In this document: positions 1,403-28,160 of the stretch, piece after piece | Position numbering within the stretch: position 1 is the stretch's first letter | Layout: the number at the start of each line of letters is the position of its first letter | NCBI RefSeq assembly: GCF_000585335.1 | Contig: NZ_KK073872.1 | Span: 3,029,283 to 3,093,282 of the forward strand | Length of the DNA stretch: 64,000 nucleotides | Direction of reading: 5' to 3' | DNA from: Cloacibacillus evryensis DSM 19522 | GTDB taxonomy: Bacteria; Synergistota; Synergistia; Synergistales; Synergistaceae | The notes under the pieces: model-generated | Seen by the model: the letters and a program-made list of their open reading frames with translations, nothing else | Databases searched by the model: none | Told to the model about the DNA's origin: nothing | Program-made: the position numbers and the translations under genes

Positions 1403-2329
1403 TTAAGCCGCCCTGTCCGGCTCTGCGCCGTCACCCGGCCTCTTTTGCAGCCCCGCGAGGAATTTTTCGCAGCTCTCGGCCATCGTATCGACCGGCGGCT
1501 CCTCTCCGGTCCAGATACGCACGGCCTCGGCTCCCTGATAAACCAACATCCACAGCCCGTCCAGCGTCCGGCAGCCGCGCGCGGAGGCTTCGCGCAGCAG
1601 ACGCGTTTCGCGCGGGTTATAGACGACGTCGCAGACCAAGTGGCGCGGCTGAAGCAGAGCGGCATCAAGGGCTGCCGCGTCGATGTCGGGCCACATCCCC
1701 AAAGAGGTCGTGTTCACGACGAAATCAACGCTGTCAAGCGCCAGTCTGATGTTCCGGCCGTCAAGCGCCGCCGCTTCCGCAAGCCCGCAGCGGCGCGAAT
1801 TCAAATCCGCGGCAAGCCGTCCGGCCTTTTCCGCCGTCCTATTGGCGATATAAAACTTTTCACAGCCGGCAGCCGCCAACGCCGAGGCCACGCCGCGCGC
1901 CGCGCCGCCGGCCCCGACGATGAGGCACCTCTTCCCCTGCGGCTCAAATCCCGCCCTTTCCCTCAGCGCGCGTACAAAGCCGGTCCCGTCGGTGTTGTAA
2001 CCGATCCTGCGGTCCCCCTTGAAGAGCACCGTGTTCACCGCGCCGGCCCCGGCCGCCGAAGGGTCCAGTTCGTCCAGCAGCTCCATGACCTTTACCTTAT
2101 ACGGTATCGTCACATTGCAGCCCATATAGCCCATCGCCGCCATCGCCCCGACCACCGCCGCCATGTCTCCGGGTTCTACCGAAACCGGAAGGTATATGGC
2201 GTCAAGCCCCATGGCGGCGTACGCGCCGTTATGCATCCGCGGCGAAGCCGAATGACCGAGCGGCCAGCCGATGAGCGCCGCTATCCTCGTATCAACTGAA
2301 ACTGGTATTTCTCTCTTCTGATATGTCAT
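1403..2329 (-). CDS. aroE: Shikimate dehydrogenase (copy 1, attenuator-controlled)
   Basis: NADP-dependent reduction of 3-dehydroshikimate to shikimate in the cytoplasmic chorismate pathway. The 308-aa protein has the substrate-binding GWPLGHSASPRMHN (residues 21-34, Ser27 and Ser29), NVTIPYK with catalytic Lys78, NTDGTG at 112-117 and the nucleotide loop GAGGAARG at 139-146, all as in true AroE. The start has GGGGAG upstream. It is preceded by a strong promoter, a Phe/Tyr/Trp-rich leader peptide and an intrinsic terminator (2413-2663). Attenuation by aromatic amino-acid supply therefore fits, and this is the best candidate for the biosynthetic copy among three paralogues (inference). It lacks the operator shared by the other nearby shikimate genes. 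Confidence 0.93.
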   Translation of the reverse strand: MTYQKREIPVSVDTRIAALIGWPLGHSASPRMHNGAYAAMGLDAIYLPVSVEPGDMAAVVGAMAAMGYMGCNVTIPYKVKVMELLDELDPSAAGAGAVNTVLFKGDRRIGYNTDGTGFVRALRERAGFEPQGKRCLIVGAGGAARGVASALAAAGCEKFYIANRTAEKAGRLAADLNSRRCGLAEAAALDGRNIRLALDSVDFVVNTTSLGMWPDIDAAALDAALLQPRHLVCDVVYNPRETRLLREASARGCRTLDGLWMLVYQGAEAVRIWTGEEPPVDTMAESCEKFLAGLQKRPGDGAEPDRAA

Positions 2330-2412: not shown

Positions 2413-2447
2413 ACAAAAAGACCGCCGCCCCTGCGGGCGGCGGTCTT
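2413..2447 (-). terminator. Intrinsic terminator in the aroE leader (attenuator)
   Basis: A perfect 13-bp stem (AAGACCGCCGCCC, 2418-2430, with its complement at 2435-2447) and a 4-base loop, followed on the minus strand by a T-rich tract. It lies between the leader peptide gene and aroE and ends transcripts before aroE unless prevented. This is the terminator arm expected of an attenuator. Confidence 0.85.
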
Positions 2448-2479
2448 GAAGTATTTTCTTGATCTTTATCCGGTCAGAA

Positions 2480-2581
2480 TCACTTCGCGAAAAACGCCAA
2501 ACACCCCGAGGCATCAAACGAGCGGGGAAAAGTAAAAAACCAGTAAAAGTAAAAGTTTTTATTCAACAACGCTTTTCCCAT
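2480..2581 (-). CDS. Aromatic-rich leader peptide of aroE (33 aa)
   Basis: Short frame with ATG at 2581 and a GAGAGG ribosome-site candidate about 9 bases upstream. Residues 10-18 read FYFYWFFTF: five Phe, two Tyr and one Trp in nine codons, much like the enterobacterial pheA leader peptide. It lies between a consensus promoter (2635-2663) and a strong terminator (2413-2447), directly upstream of shikimate dehydrogenase. A second hairpin (CCCCG arms, 2504-2508 and 2523-2527) falls just after the Phe/Tyr/Trp run and could act as pause or competing structure. Role inferred: ribosome stalling when charged Phe/Tyr/Trp tRNAs are scarce relieves termination. Confidence 0.75.
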   Translation of the reverse strand: MGKALLNKNFYFYWFFTFPRSFDASGCLAFFAK

Positions 2582-2634
2582 AACGTGAGCCCTCTCTTTC
2601 GCGGACGTGACCGTCCCTGATTTTCGTGAGGTGA

Positions 2635-2663
2635 ATGATACCGCGCCTTTCTGTTTATGTCAA
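2635..2663 (-). promoter_or_regulatory. Promoter of the leader peptide-aroE unit
   Basis: On the minus strand TTGACA (2663-2658), 17-bp spacer, TATCAT (2640-2635): a near-consensus sigma70 promoter. The predicted start lies about 45 bases before the leader ATG. The shared TTCC...GGAA operator is absent here. Confidence 0.75.
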
Positions 2664-2883
2664 GCCGGCGCGCGGCGGTCCAGAAGCGTCGATTCATATG
2701 TACCGCCGCTCATCGCCACTCGCCTATCCGCGCCAAAGTTGCATATTATCGAGGCACCTGCGAATAGGTCAAGCAACGTGCCGTTGGACAGCATCCGGCT
2801 GCGGCTGAGGGCGTACTTGAAAAAGTTATCCAGCCTGTCAACCGTCAGCTTGCTGTCACAGCAGTTGTATTTGACTACTTCGC

Positions 2884-2979
2884 TTACACCTTTGCAACAA
2901 ACATTATGAAAAATAGAATGAGCGCGAAGATCATCATTGTTATTACCGCCGCAATTAGGATCAGTATTACTCTTCTCAT
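2884..2979 (-). CDS. Small single-span membrane peptide (31 aa), second of a pair
   Basis: ATG at 2979 with GAGAGA upstream. The peptide begins MRRV and then has about 25 uninterrupted hydrophobic residues (ILILIAAVITMMIFALILFF), ending in AKV: one transmembrane helix with a positive N-terminus. It follows another tiny membrane peptide in the same frame, 54 bases apart. I recognise no family. Possible roles are a small regulator or subunit of a membrane protein, or a toxin-like peptide; this is speculative. Confidence 0.4.
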   Translation of the reverse strand: MRRVILILIAAVITMMIFALILFFIMFVAKV

Positions 2980-3033
2980 GATTTATTATTCTCTCTCGTT
3001 GAATTTTAATAACTCGTACAAGCGGTTTCTTTC

Positions 3034-3132
3034 TCAATCCCAGAAAAACAGGCATAGAGTGATCAAAAAACAGATCAGGGATAACATGATAAGGAACAGA
3101 GGCATACTTTTCAGCCTTATTTTCGCAGGCAT
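3034..3132 (-). CDS. Small single-span membrane peptide (32 aa), first of a pair
   Basis: ATG at 3132 preceded by GGAAGGAG at good spacing. It starts MPAKIRLKSM, then a hydrophobic run (PLFLIMLSLICFLITLCLFF) ending WD: a basic N-terminus and one membrane helix. Upstream there is a possible promoter TTGTTA-16 bp-TATAAA (3203-3176, minus strand). Unknown function. The good ribosome site and the adjacent similar peptide argue for a real gene, but nothing confirms expression. Confidence 0.42.
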   Translation of the reverse strand: MPAKIRLKSMPLFLIMLSLICFLITLCLFFWD

Positions 3133-3372
3133 AAAATCAACTCCTTCCGAGGCAAGAGATACCTCACAACCTATTTTTATAATTATTTACTAATAAATAA
3201 CAATAACATTTAGGGCGATTTTTCACAAAAATCTTTTATTTCTTAAAAAGAAATTTCATTTATCACTTATTCCCGTAAGGAAAACATCGGCGTGGTTTAC
3301 CCTCACCGTTGGATCACGCAAAAGATGCCGCGCGGGACGGCACGAAAAGTATATTTATAGGAAATTCAGACG

Positions 3373-3410
3373 CCGAGAGCCCCGCGTCGGGAATGACGCG
3401 GGGCTCTCGG
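3373..3410 (-). terminator. Long perfect hairpin downstream of the EamA gene
   Basis: A 16-bp perfect stem (3373-3388 with 3395-3410) and a 6-base loop. It lies about 100 bases past the end of the EamA gene, with only a weak T-rich tail on the minus strand. It probably ends the LysR-EamA transcript. Confidence 0.6.
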
Positions 3411-3513
3411 TCCGGCCGCTATGATGTTTTATCTATCGTGCGGATATTACCGCGTTTACGAATGTCTCACAAAAATCTTTAGACGCCCGCCGCCGGTCTT
3501 TCACGGCGCGCCG

Positions 3514-6470: not shown

Positions 6471-7376
6471 TCAATTATGCTTTTGCAAACCTTCGAGAAA
6501 ACGTTCGCAGCCCGCGGCCATCACGTCGACCGGAGGTTCGAGCCCAGTCCAGATGCGGACGGCCTCCGCCCCCTGGTAGACGAGCATCCACATGCCGTCA
6601 AGCGTCCGGCAGCCAAGCGCGGCGGCTTCGCGCAGAAGGCGCGTTTCACGCGGGCTGTAGACGACGTCGCAGACAAAGTGCCGGGGTGACAGCAGCGAGG
6701 TGTCAAAGGCCACCGTCTCCTCGTTCGGGCGCATTCCGAGGCGCGTCGCGTGGACGACGAAGTCAGCCTCCGCGAGAGCCTCTCCGACATTTTTTTCGTC
6801 AAGGACCAGCGGAGCGGTCGTACCGTGGCGCAGCGCGTTCATATCATCCGCGAGACGCTCCGCCATCTCATATTCCTCCGCCCTGTTGGCGATAAAGAAT
6901 TTCGCGGCCCCAGCTATCGCGAGAGCGGAGGCGACGCCGCGCGCCGCGCCGCCCGCGCCGATCATCAGGCACCTTTTGCCGGCCGGGTCAAAACCGCCCT
7001 TCTCCTTCAAAGCGTGGACGAAGCCGGTGCCGTCGGTATTGTAACCAACCTTGCGCCCCTCTTTGAAGAGCACGGTGTTCACCGCCCCCGACTCCGCCGC
7101 CGAGGGGTGCAGCTCGTCCATGAGCTCCTTCACGACGACCTTGTGGGGAATGGTGACGTTGCAGCCCATGAAGCCCATCGTCTCCATCGCCCCCACCGCC
7201 TCTTCGACGTTCCGCGGCTCCACGGGCAGCGGAAGATAGAGAGCGTCAAGCCCCATCGCGGCATAGGCGTCGTTGTGCATCTCCGCGGAGGCCGAATGGC
7301 CGAGAGGCCACCCAATGAGCGCGGCGAGTTTCGTATTTACGGAAATCGGCAGCTCCCTGTTTCTATAGGGGCTCAT
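6471..7376 (-). CDS. aroE: Shikimate dehydrogenase-family enzyme (copy 2, in the TTT operon)
   Basis: 301-aa NAD(P)-dependent oxidoreductase of the shikimate/quinate dehydrogenase family. The binding loop GWPLGHSASAEMHN (residues 22-35), NVTIPHK with Lys79, NTDGTG (114-119) and GAGGAARG (141-148) are all intact, so it should bind shikimate-like acids. It starts 4 bases after tctA within a transporter operon that carries the shared operator. This points to catabolic oxidation of an imported hydroaromatic acid rather than biosynthesis (inference). It is closely similar to copy 1, from which it may have arisen by duplication. Confidence 0.92.
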   Translation of the reverse strand: MSPYRNRELPISVNTKLAALIGWPLGHSASAEMHNDAYAAMGLDALYLPLPVEPRNVEEAVGAMETMGFMGCNVTIPHKVVVKELMDELHPSAAESGAVNTVLFKEGRKVGYNTDGTGFVHALKEKGGFDPAGKRCLMIGAGGAARGVASALAIAGAAKFFIANRAEEYEMAERLADDMNALRHGTTAPLVLDEKNVGEALAEADFVVHATRLGMRPNEETVAFDTSLLSPRHFVCDVVYSPRETRLLREAAALGCRTLDGMWMLVYQGAEAVRIWTGLEPPVDVMAAGCERFLEGLQKHN

Positions 7377-9523: not shown

Positions 9524-10522
9524 TTATTTAGGCTGCGTGATGTTGAATTCCTTGGGAGATTTTTTCGCTCCGCCGGCGTTAAAGATGAGCCAGCTCGCCG
9601 TCGATTCAAACTTCTTCGTGAAATTCGCCGCCTTCTGCCCGGTAAGTCCCATCTTGAAGCCGCCGGAGTTCGTCACGAACTCGGTGAAGCGCGCCTCGTT
9701 ATAGGCCTTTGTAAAGGCGTCCGTGAGCTTCGCCACGACATCCTTCGGCGTACCCTTCTTCACGAACACTCCGTAGAAAGGTCCCCAGGGAAGATACTGC
9801 TTGTATTCGGGGTAGATCTCCGTGATCGCCGGAACGTCGGGAAGCTGCGGGACGCGCTCTGTGCGCAGCACCGCGAGACCGCGCAGGCGGCCGGCTTTGA
9901 TGTACTCGACCGAGGTCGAGAGCGCAAGCGGCATCACATCGGCGTGTCCGCCCATCACCGCCGTCGCTCCGGGGCCGTCGCCGTCAAACTGGATCATGTT
10001 GAACTGGATATTGTGCAGGTTCTTCATCATCGCGCCCGCGACATAGGGAAGCCCGCCCGTGCCGGAGGTGCCCATCTTGATCTTGCTGTTCTTCTTCGCC
10101 GCCTCGACAAGGTCCTTCATCGTCTTGTAGGGCGTCTCGGGATTGACGCAGATGACGACCGCGCCCTCTACGGGGATGATGATGGGTTCAAAATCGTTGA
10201 AGCTGAGCGGGGAAAGTCCGAGCACCCTGTAGGTGGCGGGATTTTCCGCCGCGTAAAGCAGCGTGTAGCCGTCCGCGGGCATGTTAGCGACCATCGTCGT
10301 GGCGACCGCACCGGTAGCTCCCGTCTTATTCTGCAGGATGATCGTCTTGCCGAGATGCTTCTCCGCAAGCGGGGTTATGGCGCGAGACACGCCGTCACAG
10401 CCGCCGCCTGCACCCCACATGATGATGCCCTGAATGTTTTTCTCAGGGTAGGCCGCAAGCACCGACGTCGCCATACACATTACGATGAAAAGAGAAAGAC
10501 CCAACGCTTTGAAATTCTTCAT
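9524..10522 (-). CDS. TTT substrate-binding receptor (TctC/Bug family), first gene of operon
   Basis: 332-aa periplasmic receptor with signal peptide (MKNFKALGLSLFIVMCMATS, cleavage near VLA-AYP). Conserved Bug-family segments are AYPEKNIQGIIMWGAGGG, QNKTGATGAVATT and PWGPFYGVFVKKGTP. The ATG at 10522 has AAGGAGG upstream; longer frames lack a signal peptide at the right place. It is promoter-proximal in the five-gene operon receptor-tctB-tctA-aroE-receptor, driven by the operator-controlled promoter at 10636-10707. Ligand unknown; operon context suggests a hydroaromatic acid. Confidence 0.92.
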   Translation of the reverse strand: MKNFKALGLSLFIVMCMATSVLAAYPEKNIQGIIMWGAGGGCDGVSRAITPLAEKHLGKTIILQNKTGATGAVATTMVANMPADGYTLLYAAENPATYRVLGLSPLSFNDFEPIIIPVEGAVVICVNPETPYKTMKDLVEAAKKNSKIKMGTSGTGGLPYVAGAMMKNLHNIQFNMIQFDGDGPGATAVMGGHADVMPLALSTSVEYIKAGRLRGLAVLRTERVPQLPDVPAITEIYPEYKQYLPWGPFYGVFVKKGTPKDVVAKLTDAFTKAYNEARFTEFVTNSGGFKMGLTGQKAANFTKKFESTASWLIFNAGGAKKSPKEFNITQPK

Positions 10523-10635
10523 TACAAATGTACCCTCCTTGAATATGTTTTTGAAAAAACAGCCACAGCGCAACAGTGGGAGAAATATAAAAACTCCGGT
10601 GGCGTCGCTGTAAGGCAGATGCCTTCAATAATAGT

Positions 10636-10707
10636 TTCCATTTCATGGAAAAATCATCCGTTATTAGAAATTATCCATACAATACTTTGAAAGATTTCTT
10701 TTGTCAA
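10636..10707 (-). promoter_or_regulatory. Promoter plus tandem operator, copy 2 (TTT-aroE operon)
   Basis: Minus strand: TTGACA (10707-10702), 17 bp, TATTGT (10684-10679). In plus orientation the two 15-bp sites are ATCCGTTATTAGAAA (10656-10670) and TTCCATTTCATGGAA (10636-10650), again 20 bp apart. The outer site is a near-perfect palindrome extended to TTTCCAT/ATGGAAA. Overall length is 72 bp, as in the other three modules. Confidence 0.7.
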
Positions 10708-11191
10708 GTTTCCGTTCTTTGAACGTTATTCTCGAATACTAGGAAAATATGCATAATTTTCAACTTAATATACTAAATATTATTTTAAGAAATACAATTT
10801 TAGTATCATTTTATCCTAACTTTGCATTGATATAATTCAGAAAGTCGACTTTATACCTGACATTAATAAATATTAAACATCAATAGTATTGATCGAATGA
10901 TTTGGTAATTGATATACTCACTTTTTCTCATCCTGCCGGTTTATTTATCATTAGATTTTATTAATCATGATCGGTCACAAACGCTGCATAAAAGGCTATT
11001 TTAGAGAAAAAATCCGAAATATCGTTTGATAAAATCTATCAATACATATATTTTTTATACGGTGGAAACCACACATAACCGTCTATTTTGGCGGACACCG
11101 CTGCGTCATGACGGACGCACTCCGCATTAAAAATGGTACGGAGGCGGGATCACCCACTTGGTATAAAACCTCCGTAGTTTTTGTTTCGCTT
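10708..11191. other. AT-rich intergenic stretch
   Basis: No plausible gene was found. The sequence is AT-rich from 10708 to about 11060, then more GC-rich near the isomerase remnant, with a short TGCGTC/GACGCA hairpin near 11102-11119. It looks like decayed sequence between the remnant and the TTT promoter. Confidence 0.45.
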
Positions 11192-27269: not shown

Positions 27270-28160
27270 TTATGATTTGAGCCGGCCCTGCGCGCGCAGG
27301 AAATTCATCTCGGCGAGATACATGAAATCGGCCGGGGCCTCAATGCCGAACCAGAGGCGCATCTGCTCTATCGCGCCGTTGATATTCATCCAAAGGCCCG
27401 AAAGCGTCGCGCAGCCGCGCGCCTTCGCCTCGGCAAGCAGCTTCGTCTCCGCGGGAACGTAGACAACGTCGCAGACCGTGTGCGCGGGCGAAAGCCACTC
27501 CGTATTGAAAAGTACCGCGTCCGACTTAGGGTACATCCCGACCTTTGTCGCATGGACGACGACGTCGTAGTCGGCGAGATTTTTCTCTATCGTTTCGTCA
27601 TTCATATAATCAACGGTGCAGCGGCCCGGATAGAAGATCTCTATTCTGCTTTGCAGCTTCTCCGCGAGCGCGAAGTCCTCTTTGATGTTGAGCACCTTCA
27701 GGTCCTTCGCGCCGCTCTTTGCGAGGGCCGCCGCCACCGCGCTCGCCGCGCCGCCCGCGCCGAGAATGAGGAACTTATGCTCGGCGATGTTCATACCGCA
27801 GCGCGTCTCAAAAGCCTTGACACAACCGGAGCCGTCCGTGTTGTACCCGATGAGCCGTCCCTCCCCGTCGACGACGATAGTGTTGACGACCTCCGTACAG
27901 CGCGACGATTCGTCAAGGCCGTCCAGGTACTTGTAGACGACAGTTTTGAAGGGCATCGTCACGGAGGCGCCGCCGAAATGGAACCGCTTGAGATTCCTCA
28001 CGACATGCTCGAGGTCCTCCATTTCAATTTCGTACGGCGCGTAAAAACAGTCCATGCCCAGCGCCTGATAGACGCTGTTGTGCAGATATGCCGCCGCGCT
28101 CTGCCCCAGCGGATTGCCGAAAAGCCCGATAAATTTTGTGTTGACTGTCGAATTGAACAT
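27270..28160 (-). CDS. Shikimate/quinate dehydrogenase-family enzyme with altered binding loop (copy 3)
   Basis: 296-aa AroE-family oxidoreductase. Lys72 in SVTMPFK, NTDGSG (107-112) and GAGGAAS (134-140) are retained. The substrate loop reads GNPLGQSAAAYLHN, so the second Ser of the usual SxS pair is Ala and the His-Ser of GHS is Gln-Ser. In quinate-active relatives the same position is Thr, so substrate preference is probably not plain shikimate. GAGAAG upstream supports ATG 28160, although an in-frame ATG at 28232 would add 24 poorly conserved residues. It is first enzyme of a nine-gene operon with TIM-barrel, VOC, TRAP, cupin and MFS genes. Confidence 0.88.
   Translation of the reverse strand: MFNSTVNTKFIGLFGNPLGQSAAAYLHNSVYQALGMDCFYAPYEIEMEDLEHVVRNLKRFHFGGASVTMPFKTVVYKYLDGLDESSRCTEVVNTIVVDGEGRLIGYNTDGSGCVKAFETRCGMNIAEHKFLILGAGGAASAVAAALAKSGAKDLKVLNIKEDFALAEKLQSRIEIFYPGRCTVDYMNDETIEKNLADYDVVVHATKVGMYPKSDAVLFNTEWLSPAHTVCDVVYVPAETKLLAEAKARGCATLSGLWMNINGAIEQMRLWFGIEAPADFMYLAEMNFLRAQGRLKS

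What the first reader, a model, noticed from the sequence alone, without database searches (positions are those of the whole stretch)
2413..2663. Phe/Tyr/Trp leader-peptide attenuator in front of shikimate dehydrogenase
A near-consensus promoter is followed by a 33-codon frame with FYFYWFFTF at codons 10-18, a hairpin just after that run, a strong intrinsic terminator, then aroE. This is the layout of a ribosome-mediated attenuator. The peptide mixes all three aromatic amino acids, which suits control of the common pathway rather than one branch. It also separates the biosynthetic aroE from its two catabolic-looking paralogues.
Basis: partly seen in the sequence, partly recalled or inferred. 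Interest (0 to 1): 0.75.

Follow-up and report, generated by a model that had tools for sequence, protein, structure and literature searches.

The report
Aromatic leader-peptide attenuator controlling shikimate dehydrogenase
In front of a shikimate dehydrogenase gene this bacterium (phylum Synergistota) has a short leader gene packed with Phe, Tyr and Trp codons and a transcription stop signal, most likely a switch that turns the gene on when aromatic amino acids run short; relatives indicate it was copied from a Tyr-only switch on a transporter gene and re-tuned, which happened twice.

Summary
A near-consensus promoter, a 33-codon frame with FYFYWFFTF at codons 10-18, a hairpin, a 13-bp intrinsic terminator and aroE follow one another on the minus strand. 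In 20,000 local shuffles no short frame reached 8 aromatics in 9 codons. A Tyr-only version of the same element precedes transporter genes across the family, including a second copy in this genome. The mixed Phe/Tyr/Trp version precedes aroE only in this genus and, independently, in another family of the phylum; a tree of the leaders requires two origins of the aroE copies. The terminator covaries strongly; the antiterminator pairing is conserved, but in the window copy it is no stronger than shuffles. Of four AroE homologues in the genome only this one has the NADP-type NRTxxK motif, and the aro operon, which has its own mixed aromatic leader, lacks aroE. The mechanism is classical ribosome-mediated attenuation, so the kind is known. 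New are the phylum, the aroE target and the repeated re-tuning of one RNA cassette by codon changes. I found no earlier report in the papers searched. Nothing is shown by experiment.

The parts
2635..2663 (-). sigma-70-type promoter TTGACA-17-TATCAT
   Evidence: the same -35/-10 pair precedes the copies in G001 and in front of the transporter in this genome
2480..2581 (-). leader peptide gene, 33 codons, MGKALLNKNFYFYWFFTFPRSFDASGCLAFFAK
   Evidence: conserved in G001; Tyr-run homologues across the family
2528..2554 (-). sensor run, codons 10-18: Phe-Tyr-Phe-Tyr-Trp-Phe-Phe-Thr-Phe
2504..2527 (-). 1:2 hairpin CCCCG / CGGGG just after the run (pause or anti-antiterminator)
   Evidence: 99% of cells paired in 20 distinct leaders, G-U changes on one side only
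2481..2498 (-). segment 2 of the antiterminator, GGCGUUUUUCGCGAAGUG, overlapping the leader stop codon
   Evidence: register conserved
2435..2452 (-). segment 3: ACUUC plus the 5' arm of the terminator (AAGACCGCCGCCC)
   Evidence: GAAGU/ACUUC 97% paired; extension to the terminator arm 82%
2418..2447 (-). intrinsic terminator, 13 pairs, followed by a U tract
   Evidence: 8 of 13 pairs show changes on both sides across relatives
1403..2329 (-). aroE (shikimate dehydrogenase), the controlled gene
   Evidence: NRTxxK motif; closest solved structures are AroE proteins 2egg and 1nvt
6471..7376 (-). aroE paralogue (68% identical) beside tripartite tricarboxylate transporter-like genes; NRAEEY in place of NRTxxK
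27297..28148 (-). second aroE paralogue in the window (41% identical), no NRTxxK motif

Best explanation
This is a ribosome-mediated transcription attenuator of the trp/phe type that controls aroE. RNA polymerase starts from the promoter at 2663-2635 and a ribosome translates the leader. If charged tRNA-Phe, tRNA-Tyr or tRNA-Trp is scarce, the ribosome stalls in codons 10-18. It then stands on or next to the CCCCG arm and leaves segment 2 (GGCGUUUUUCGCGAAGUG) free to pair with ACUUC plus the 5' arm of the terminator, so the terminator cannot form in time and aroE is transcribed. If all three are abundant, the ribosome runs to the stop codon, which lies inside segment 2, covers that segment, and the 13-bp terminator forms. 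Shown from sequence: the layout, its conservation, terminator covariation, and the match between codon run and type of gene controlled. Inferred: stalling, the kinetic competition, and the response of aroE. The element arose as a copy of a Tyr-only leader that precedes a sodium:solute symporter gene, with its codon run changed to a Phe/Tyr/Trp mixture; it serves an aroE that stands outside the aro operon.
For: Layout and chance. Frame and aromatic residues kept in G001 with 4 synonymous changes and 1 non-synonymous change, the latter outside the run. A covariance model finds the element in 21 of 53 family genomes and 31 of 188 phylum genomes at E<=0.001, a few of the weakest being false. Terminator, 1:2 hairpin and GAAGU/ACUUC: 96.7% of cells paired, 9 pairs with changes on both sides, 0 of 500 shuffles as good. 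Antiterminator 88% paired against 37-60% when slid; all 15 duplexes tested lie below the shuffle mean, most in one register. With the ribosome placed in the run, 58-70% of the terminator 5' arm pairs upstream before segment 4 is made; [quoted passage not shown] In G014 and G010 the frame after the run is shifted while the RNA GCCTCGGGG...GGTGTTTTC stays, so the RNA and not the peptide tail is selected. Five aroE leaders in two families carry W, F and Y in the run; 20 transporter leaders carry no W there. In the other family the antiterminator is stronger than shuffles in all five leaders tested (z -2.5 to -4.2). The tree needs two origins of the aroE label, with 0 of 200 bootstrap trees giving one. 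The aro operon of the same genome has its own mixed leader (FYFTCWNWDYYF), kept in G001.
Against: In the window copy the pairing of segment 2 with the terminator arm alone is no stronger than shuffles (z +0.6), and with the ACUUC extension only z -0.8, P 0.18. The antiterminator has few compensatory changes. At equilibrium the terminator always wins, so the switch relies on kinetics. Only two species carry this aroE copy. The nearest aroE orthologue outside the genus (G011, 58%) has no such leader. No expression data were available.
Confidence: 0.86

Rival explanations
1. [quoted passage not shown]
For: The peptide ends PRxxDASGxLxFxxK are similar between copies.
Against: In G014 and G010 the tail is read in another frame while the RNA is conserved, so the tail peptide is not what is kept. 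Aromatic codon content changes with the downstream gene. The stop codon lies inside the pairing segment, as expected of an attenuator.
Confidence: 0.05
2. The terminator merely ends upstream transcription or is constitutive, and the leader frame is translated without regulatory effect.
For: The terminator is very strong; equilibrium folding always gives it; the antiterminator is ordinary against shuffles in the window copy.
Against: Promoter, leader frame and terminator occur together as a cassette before several genes. Aromatic codons are conserved across the family with synonymous variation. The other family has clear antiterminators.
Confidence: 0.06
3. The attenuator is real but the aroE it controls is a quinate/shikimate-utilisation enzyme like its 68% paralogue, not the biosynthetic one.
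For: A close paralogue sits 4 kb away in a transporter cluster, and genes of a transporter follow aroE after a gap.
Against: Only this copy has NRTxxK; the aro operon lacks aroE; a relative carries aroE fused to aroK, and in several relatives the aro operon also has a mixed aromatic leader; starvation-induced control fits biosynthesis.
Confidence: 0.12
4. A T-box or other riboswitch controls aroE, and the leader frame is incidental.
For: Strong RNA structure upstream of an amino-acid gene.
Against: No Rfam family reaches its gathering score anywhere in the window; the aromatic run is far beyond chance.
Confidence: 0.01

Closest known systems
trp and phe operon leader attenuators of enterobacteria (trpL, pheL; aromatic genes of gamma-proteobacteria, Panina 2001, cited in PMC1262725)
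   Same: Leader peptide rich in the regulated amino acid, 1:2, 2:3 and 3:4 pairing scheme, intrinsic terminator before the first gene.
   Different: Different phylum, no recognisable sequence homology (no Rfam match), target aroE, and all three aromatic amino acids in one run.
uORFC-13-1 motif upstream of aroF in Acholeplasma (PMC8632094)
   Same: Predicted uORF attenuator on a shikimate-pathway gene.
   Different: Phe codons only, aroF, another phylum, no mixed run.
Tyr-tRNA-sensing attenuation hypothesised for E. coli aroF-tyrA (Camakaris 1980, cited in PMC2659441)
   Same: Aromatic control of a common-pathway gene by attenuation.
   Different: Different gene and lineage; no mixed leader described there.
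Tyr-only leaders before SSS symporter or TRAP genes in Synergistota (found here)
   Same: Same promoter, frame and RNA scaffold; 79% identical DNA to the copy in the same genome.
   Different: Run is YYYYFYAY or similar, no Trp; downstream genes are transporters.

Membership tests
ribosome-mediated transcription attenuator | promoter and a short translated leader frame with ribosome-binding site upstream of the structural gene | tested here: met
   frame conserved with mostly synonymous change; translation itself not shown
ribosome-mediated transcription attenuator | run of codons for the end product, conserved in relatives | tested here: met
ribosome-mediated transcription attenuator | intrinsic terminator between leader and gene | tested here: met
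   covariation
ribosome-mediated transcription attenuator | antiterminator that excludes the terminator and is masked when the ribosome reaches the stop codon | tested here: inconclusive
   Conserved register and predicted co-transcriptional pairing, but energy not beyond shuffles in the window copy; clearly beyond shuffles in the second family
ribosome-mediated transcription attenuator | termination responds to charged tRNA level | not testable with these tools
   needs term-seq or reporters
Rfam leader families (Trp, His, Thr, Leu leaders) and T-box | covariance model match above gathering score | tested here: not met
   no match in the window
TnaC-like arrest peptide | conserved peptide residues at and before the stop codon | tested here: not met
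   tail frame shifted in G014 and G010 while RNA is kept
biosynthetic AroE | NADP-type NRTxxR/K motif in the cofactor loop and membership of the aroE equivalog | tested here: met
   the significance of the motif is from general knowledge of the family

The most novel reading that the evidence does not exclude
A modular attenuator cassette in Synergistota has been re-aimed at least twice by changing codons: a Tyr-only leader serving transporters was duplicated in front of aroE and its run changed to Phe/Tyr/Trp, once in this genus (from a symporter leader) and once in another family (from a TRAP-transporter leader), while the RNA switch stayed the same.
Probability: 0.72. Interest if true: 0.62.

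Novelty: new member of a known kind. Interest (0 to 1): 0.52.

Why it matters
Leader-peptide attenuators have been described mainly in proteobacteria and some Gram-positive groups; full-text searches found none described for aromatic genes of Synergistota. Here one RNA scaffold carries different amino-acid sensors on different genes, with parallel changes in two lineages. That makes the link between codon run and regulated gene directly testable, and shows how a gene that stands outside its operon can come under end-product control. It also marks which of four AroE homologues is likely biosynthetic, and suggests aromatic, probably tyrosine, uptake as a role for symporter and TRAP genes of unknown substrate.

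Tried and rejected
Rfam scan for a known RNA class: nothing. A DNA pattern scan of named genomes gave Synergistaceae contigs plus three chance hits inside coding sequence (Clostridia, Rhodobacteraceae and Brocadiia contigs). DNA-similarity hits in G031 and at G021:C6 are false, and so by inspection are model hits in G184, G043 and G176. Hits on the opposite strand of true copies are the palindromic terminator and were ignored. I first tested the antiterminator on the terminator arm alone; it did not beat shuffles in the window's family, and this is reported rather than dropped. Sixty aroE loci of relatives (some repeated) were scanned for aromatic leaders: only the genus copies and the f11 copies have convincing ones.

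Full report
What is there. On the minus strand of the window, in order: promoter TTGACA-17-TATCAT (2663-2635), a 33-codon frame from 2581 to 2480 with FYFYWFFTF at codons 10-18, a CCCCG/CGGGG hairpin (2527-2504), a 13-bp terminator (2447-2418) and aroE (2329-1403). The aromatic run is the densest of 656 short frames in the window, and 0 of 20,000 local shuffles equal it.

Where it recurs. The window lies at 3.03-3.09 Mb of a 3.49-Mb contig. The same genome holds a second copy, 79% identical, at 3410823. Its peptide is MGKALFNNNYYYYFYAYPRTYDASGFLVFSTK, and it precedes a 31-codon small frame and a sodium:solute symporter gene. A covariance model built from 13 copies (A3, R1) finds the element in 21 of 53 genomes of the family and 31 of 188 of the phylum. 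Most verified copies precede the same small frame plus symporter, and their runs are Tyr-rich without Trp. The aroE copy with the mixed run occurs in the two species held of this genus.

The second family. In family f11 of the same phylum, G077, G078 and G080 each carry two leaders. One, with runs such as VWFSFNYYYFYFTW, lies before aroE. The other, Tyr-only, lies before a TRAP-transporter binding-protein gene. G079 has only the latter. Their stems differ in sequence from those in the window's family. A tree of 28 leaders groups each set of aroE leaders inside its own family's transporter leaders; well-supported branches force two origins and no bootstrap tree gives one. All five aroE leaders have Trp in the run and none of 20 transporter leaders has. 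These counts are not independent samples: they represent two events.

RNA structure. On 20 distinct copies, the terminator, the 1:2 hairpin and GAAGU/ACUUC form 96.7% of possible pairs, with 9 pairs changed on both sides, beyond all 500 shuffles. The antiterminator joins GGYGUUUU and GAAGU of the leader tail to ACUUC and the terminator 5' arm. It is 88% paired against 37-60% for slid controls, with few compensatory changes. As a duplex it beats the shuffle mean in 15 of 15 copies but is individually weak (mean z -1.0; window copy -0.8, P 0.18). Against the terminator arm alone it does not beat shuffles in the window copy. In f11 it does so clearly (z -2.5 to -4.2). In simulated snapshots, a ribosome in the run leaves the terminator arm 58-70% paired upstream before its partner is made, and a ribosome at the stop codon leaves 8%. 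At equilibrium the terminator forms in every case, so the switch must be kinetic, as in the trp leader (general knowledge). In G014 and G010 the reading frame downstream of the run is shifted while the RNA motif stays, which speaks for RNA pairing and against a peptide-arrest mechanism.

Is this the biosynthetic aroE? The genome has four AroE homologues. Only this one has NRTxxK in the cofactor loop (ANRTAEKAGRL, against NRAEEYEMAE and two without the motif); that this marks NADP-dependent biosynthetic enzymes is general knowledge. The aro operon at 1.18 Mb (tyrA, aroA, aroC, a chorismate mutase/prephenate dehydratase-shikimate kinase fusion; gene names from my reading of the translations, chorismate synthase confirmed by Pfam) has no aroE. 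A relative has aroE fused to a shikimate kinase. That aro operon has its own leader, MSVAINFKSSSFYFTCWNWDYYFSLSQFAMV, followed by a terminator, kept in G001 as MATNLKSSYFYFTGWNWDYYFSRSQFVMA. Aro operons of other genera have leaders with runs such as VYYYTTLFSF and VYSYTAWFSF before a terminator. So aromatic attenuation of the shikimate pathway looks common in the family, and the separate aroE seems to have come under it by way of a transporter leader. The order of these events is inference.

Literature. Full-text searches found no description of aromatic leaders in Synergistota. The nearest are the uORFC-13-1 motif before aroF in Acholeplasma (PMC8632094), aromatic attenuators of gamma-proteobacteria (cited in PMC1262725) and a hypothesis for E. 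coli aroF (cited in PMC2659441). Most subscription papers are not in that library, so absence is weak evidence.

Verdict. A classical ribosome-mediated attenuator, new in its lineage and target, well supported by comparison, untested by experiment. The most interesting part is the repeated re-tuning of one RNA switch by changing codons.

Noticed in passing
L069 15940-16035 (minus strand; this genome, C1 about 1.186 Mb): A second mixed aromatic leader (MSVAINFKSSSFYFTCWNWDYYFSLSQFAMV) and terminator before the aro operon; conserved in G001; other genera have related leaders before their aro operons.
   Followed up: partly
L046 2024-2194 and 2354-3805: Tyr-only copy of the leader before a 31-codon small membrane protein frame and a sodium:solute symporter; suggests that the symporter and its small partner take up tyrosine.
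   Followed up: partly
L104, L106, L147, L159: Tyr-only leaders before TRAP-transporter DctP-like genes in family f11, suggesting aromatic amino acid uptake by TRAP transporters.
   Followed up: partly
L069 10918-12579 (minus) and 9764-10921 (plus): Apparent fusion of chorismate mutase, prephenate dehydratase and shikimate kinase, adjacent to a separate chorismate mutase/prephenate dehydratase-like gene on the other strand.
   Followed up: no
window 2660-3500: About 0.8 kb between the EamA-type gene and the leader that is absent at the same place in G001, holding two possible small membrane-protein frames (2884-2979 and 3034-3132, minus strand).
   Followed up: no
window 2582-2628: A 5' hairpin (GGACGGUCACGUCC) ahead of the leader ribosome-binding site; transporter copies have a different-sequence hairpin (CGAAAA...UUUUCG) in the same place.
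   Followed up: partly
L046 542-1870 (minus strand): A transposase-like gene immediately upstream of the symporter leader copy; a possible agent of cassette copying, not tested.
   Followed up: no
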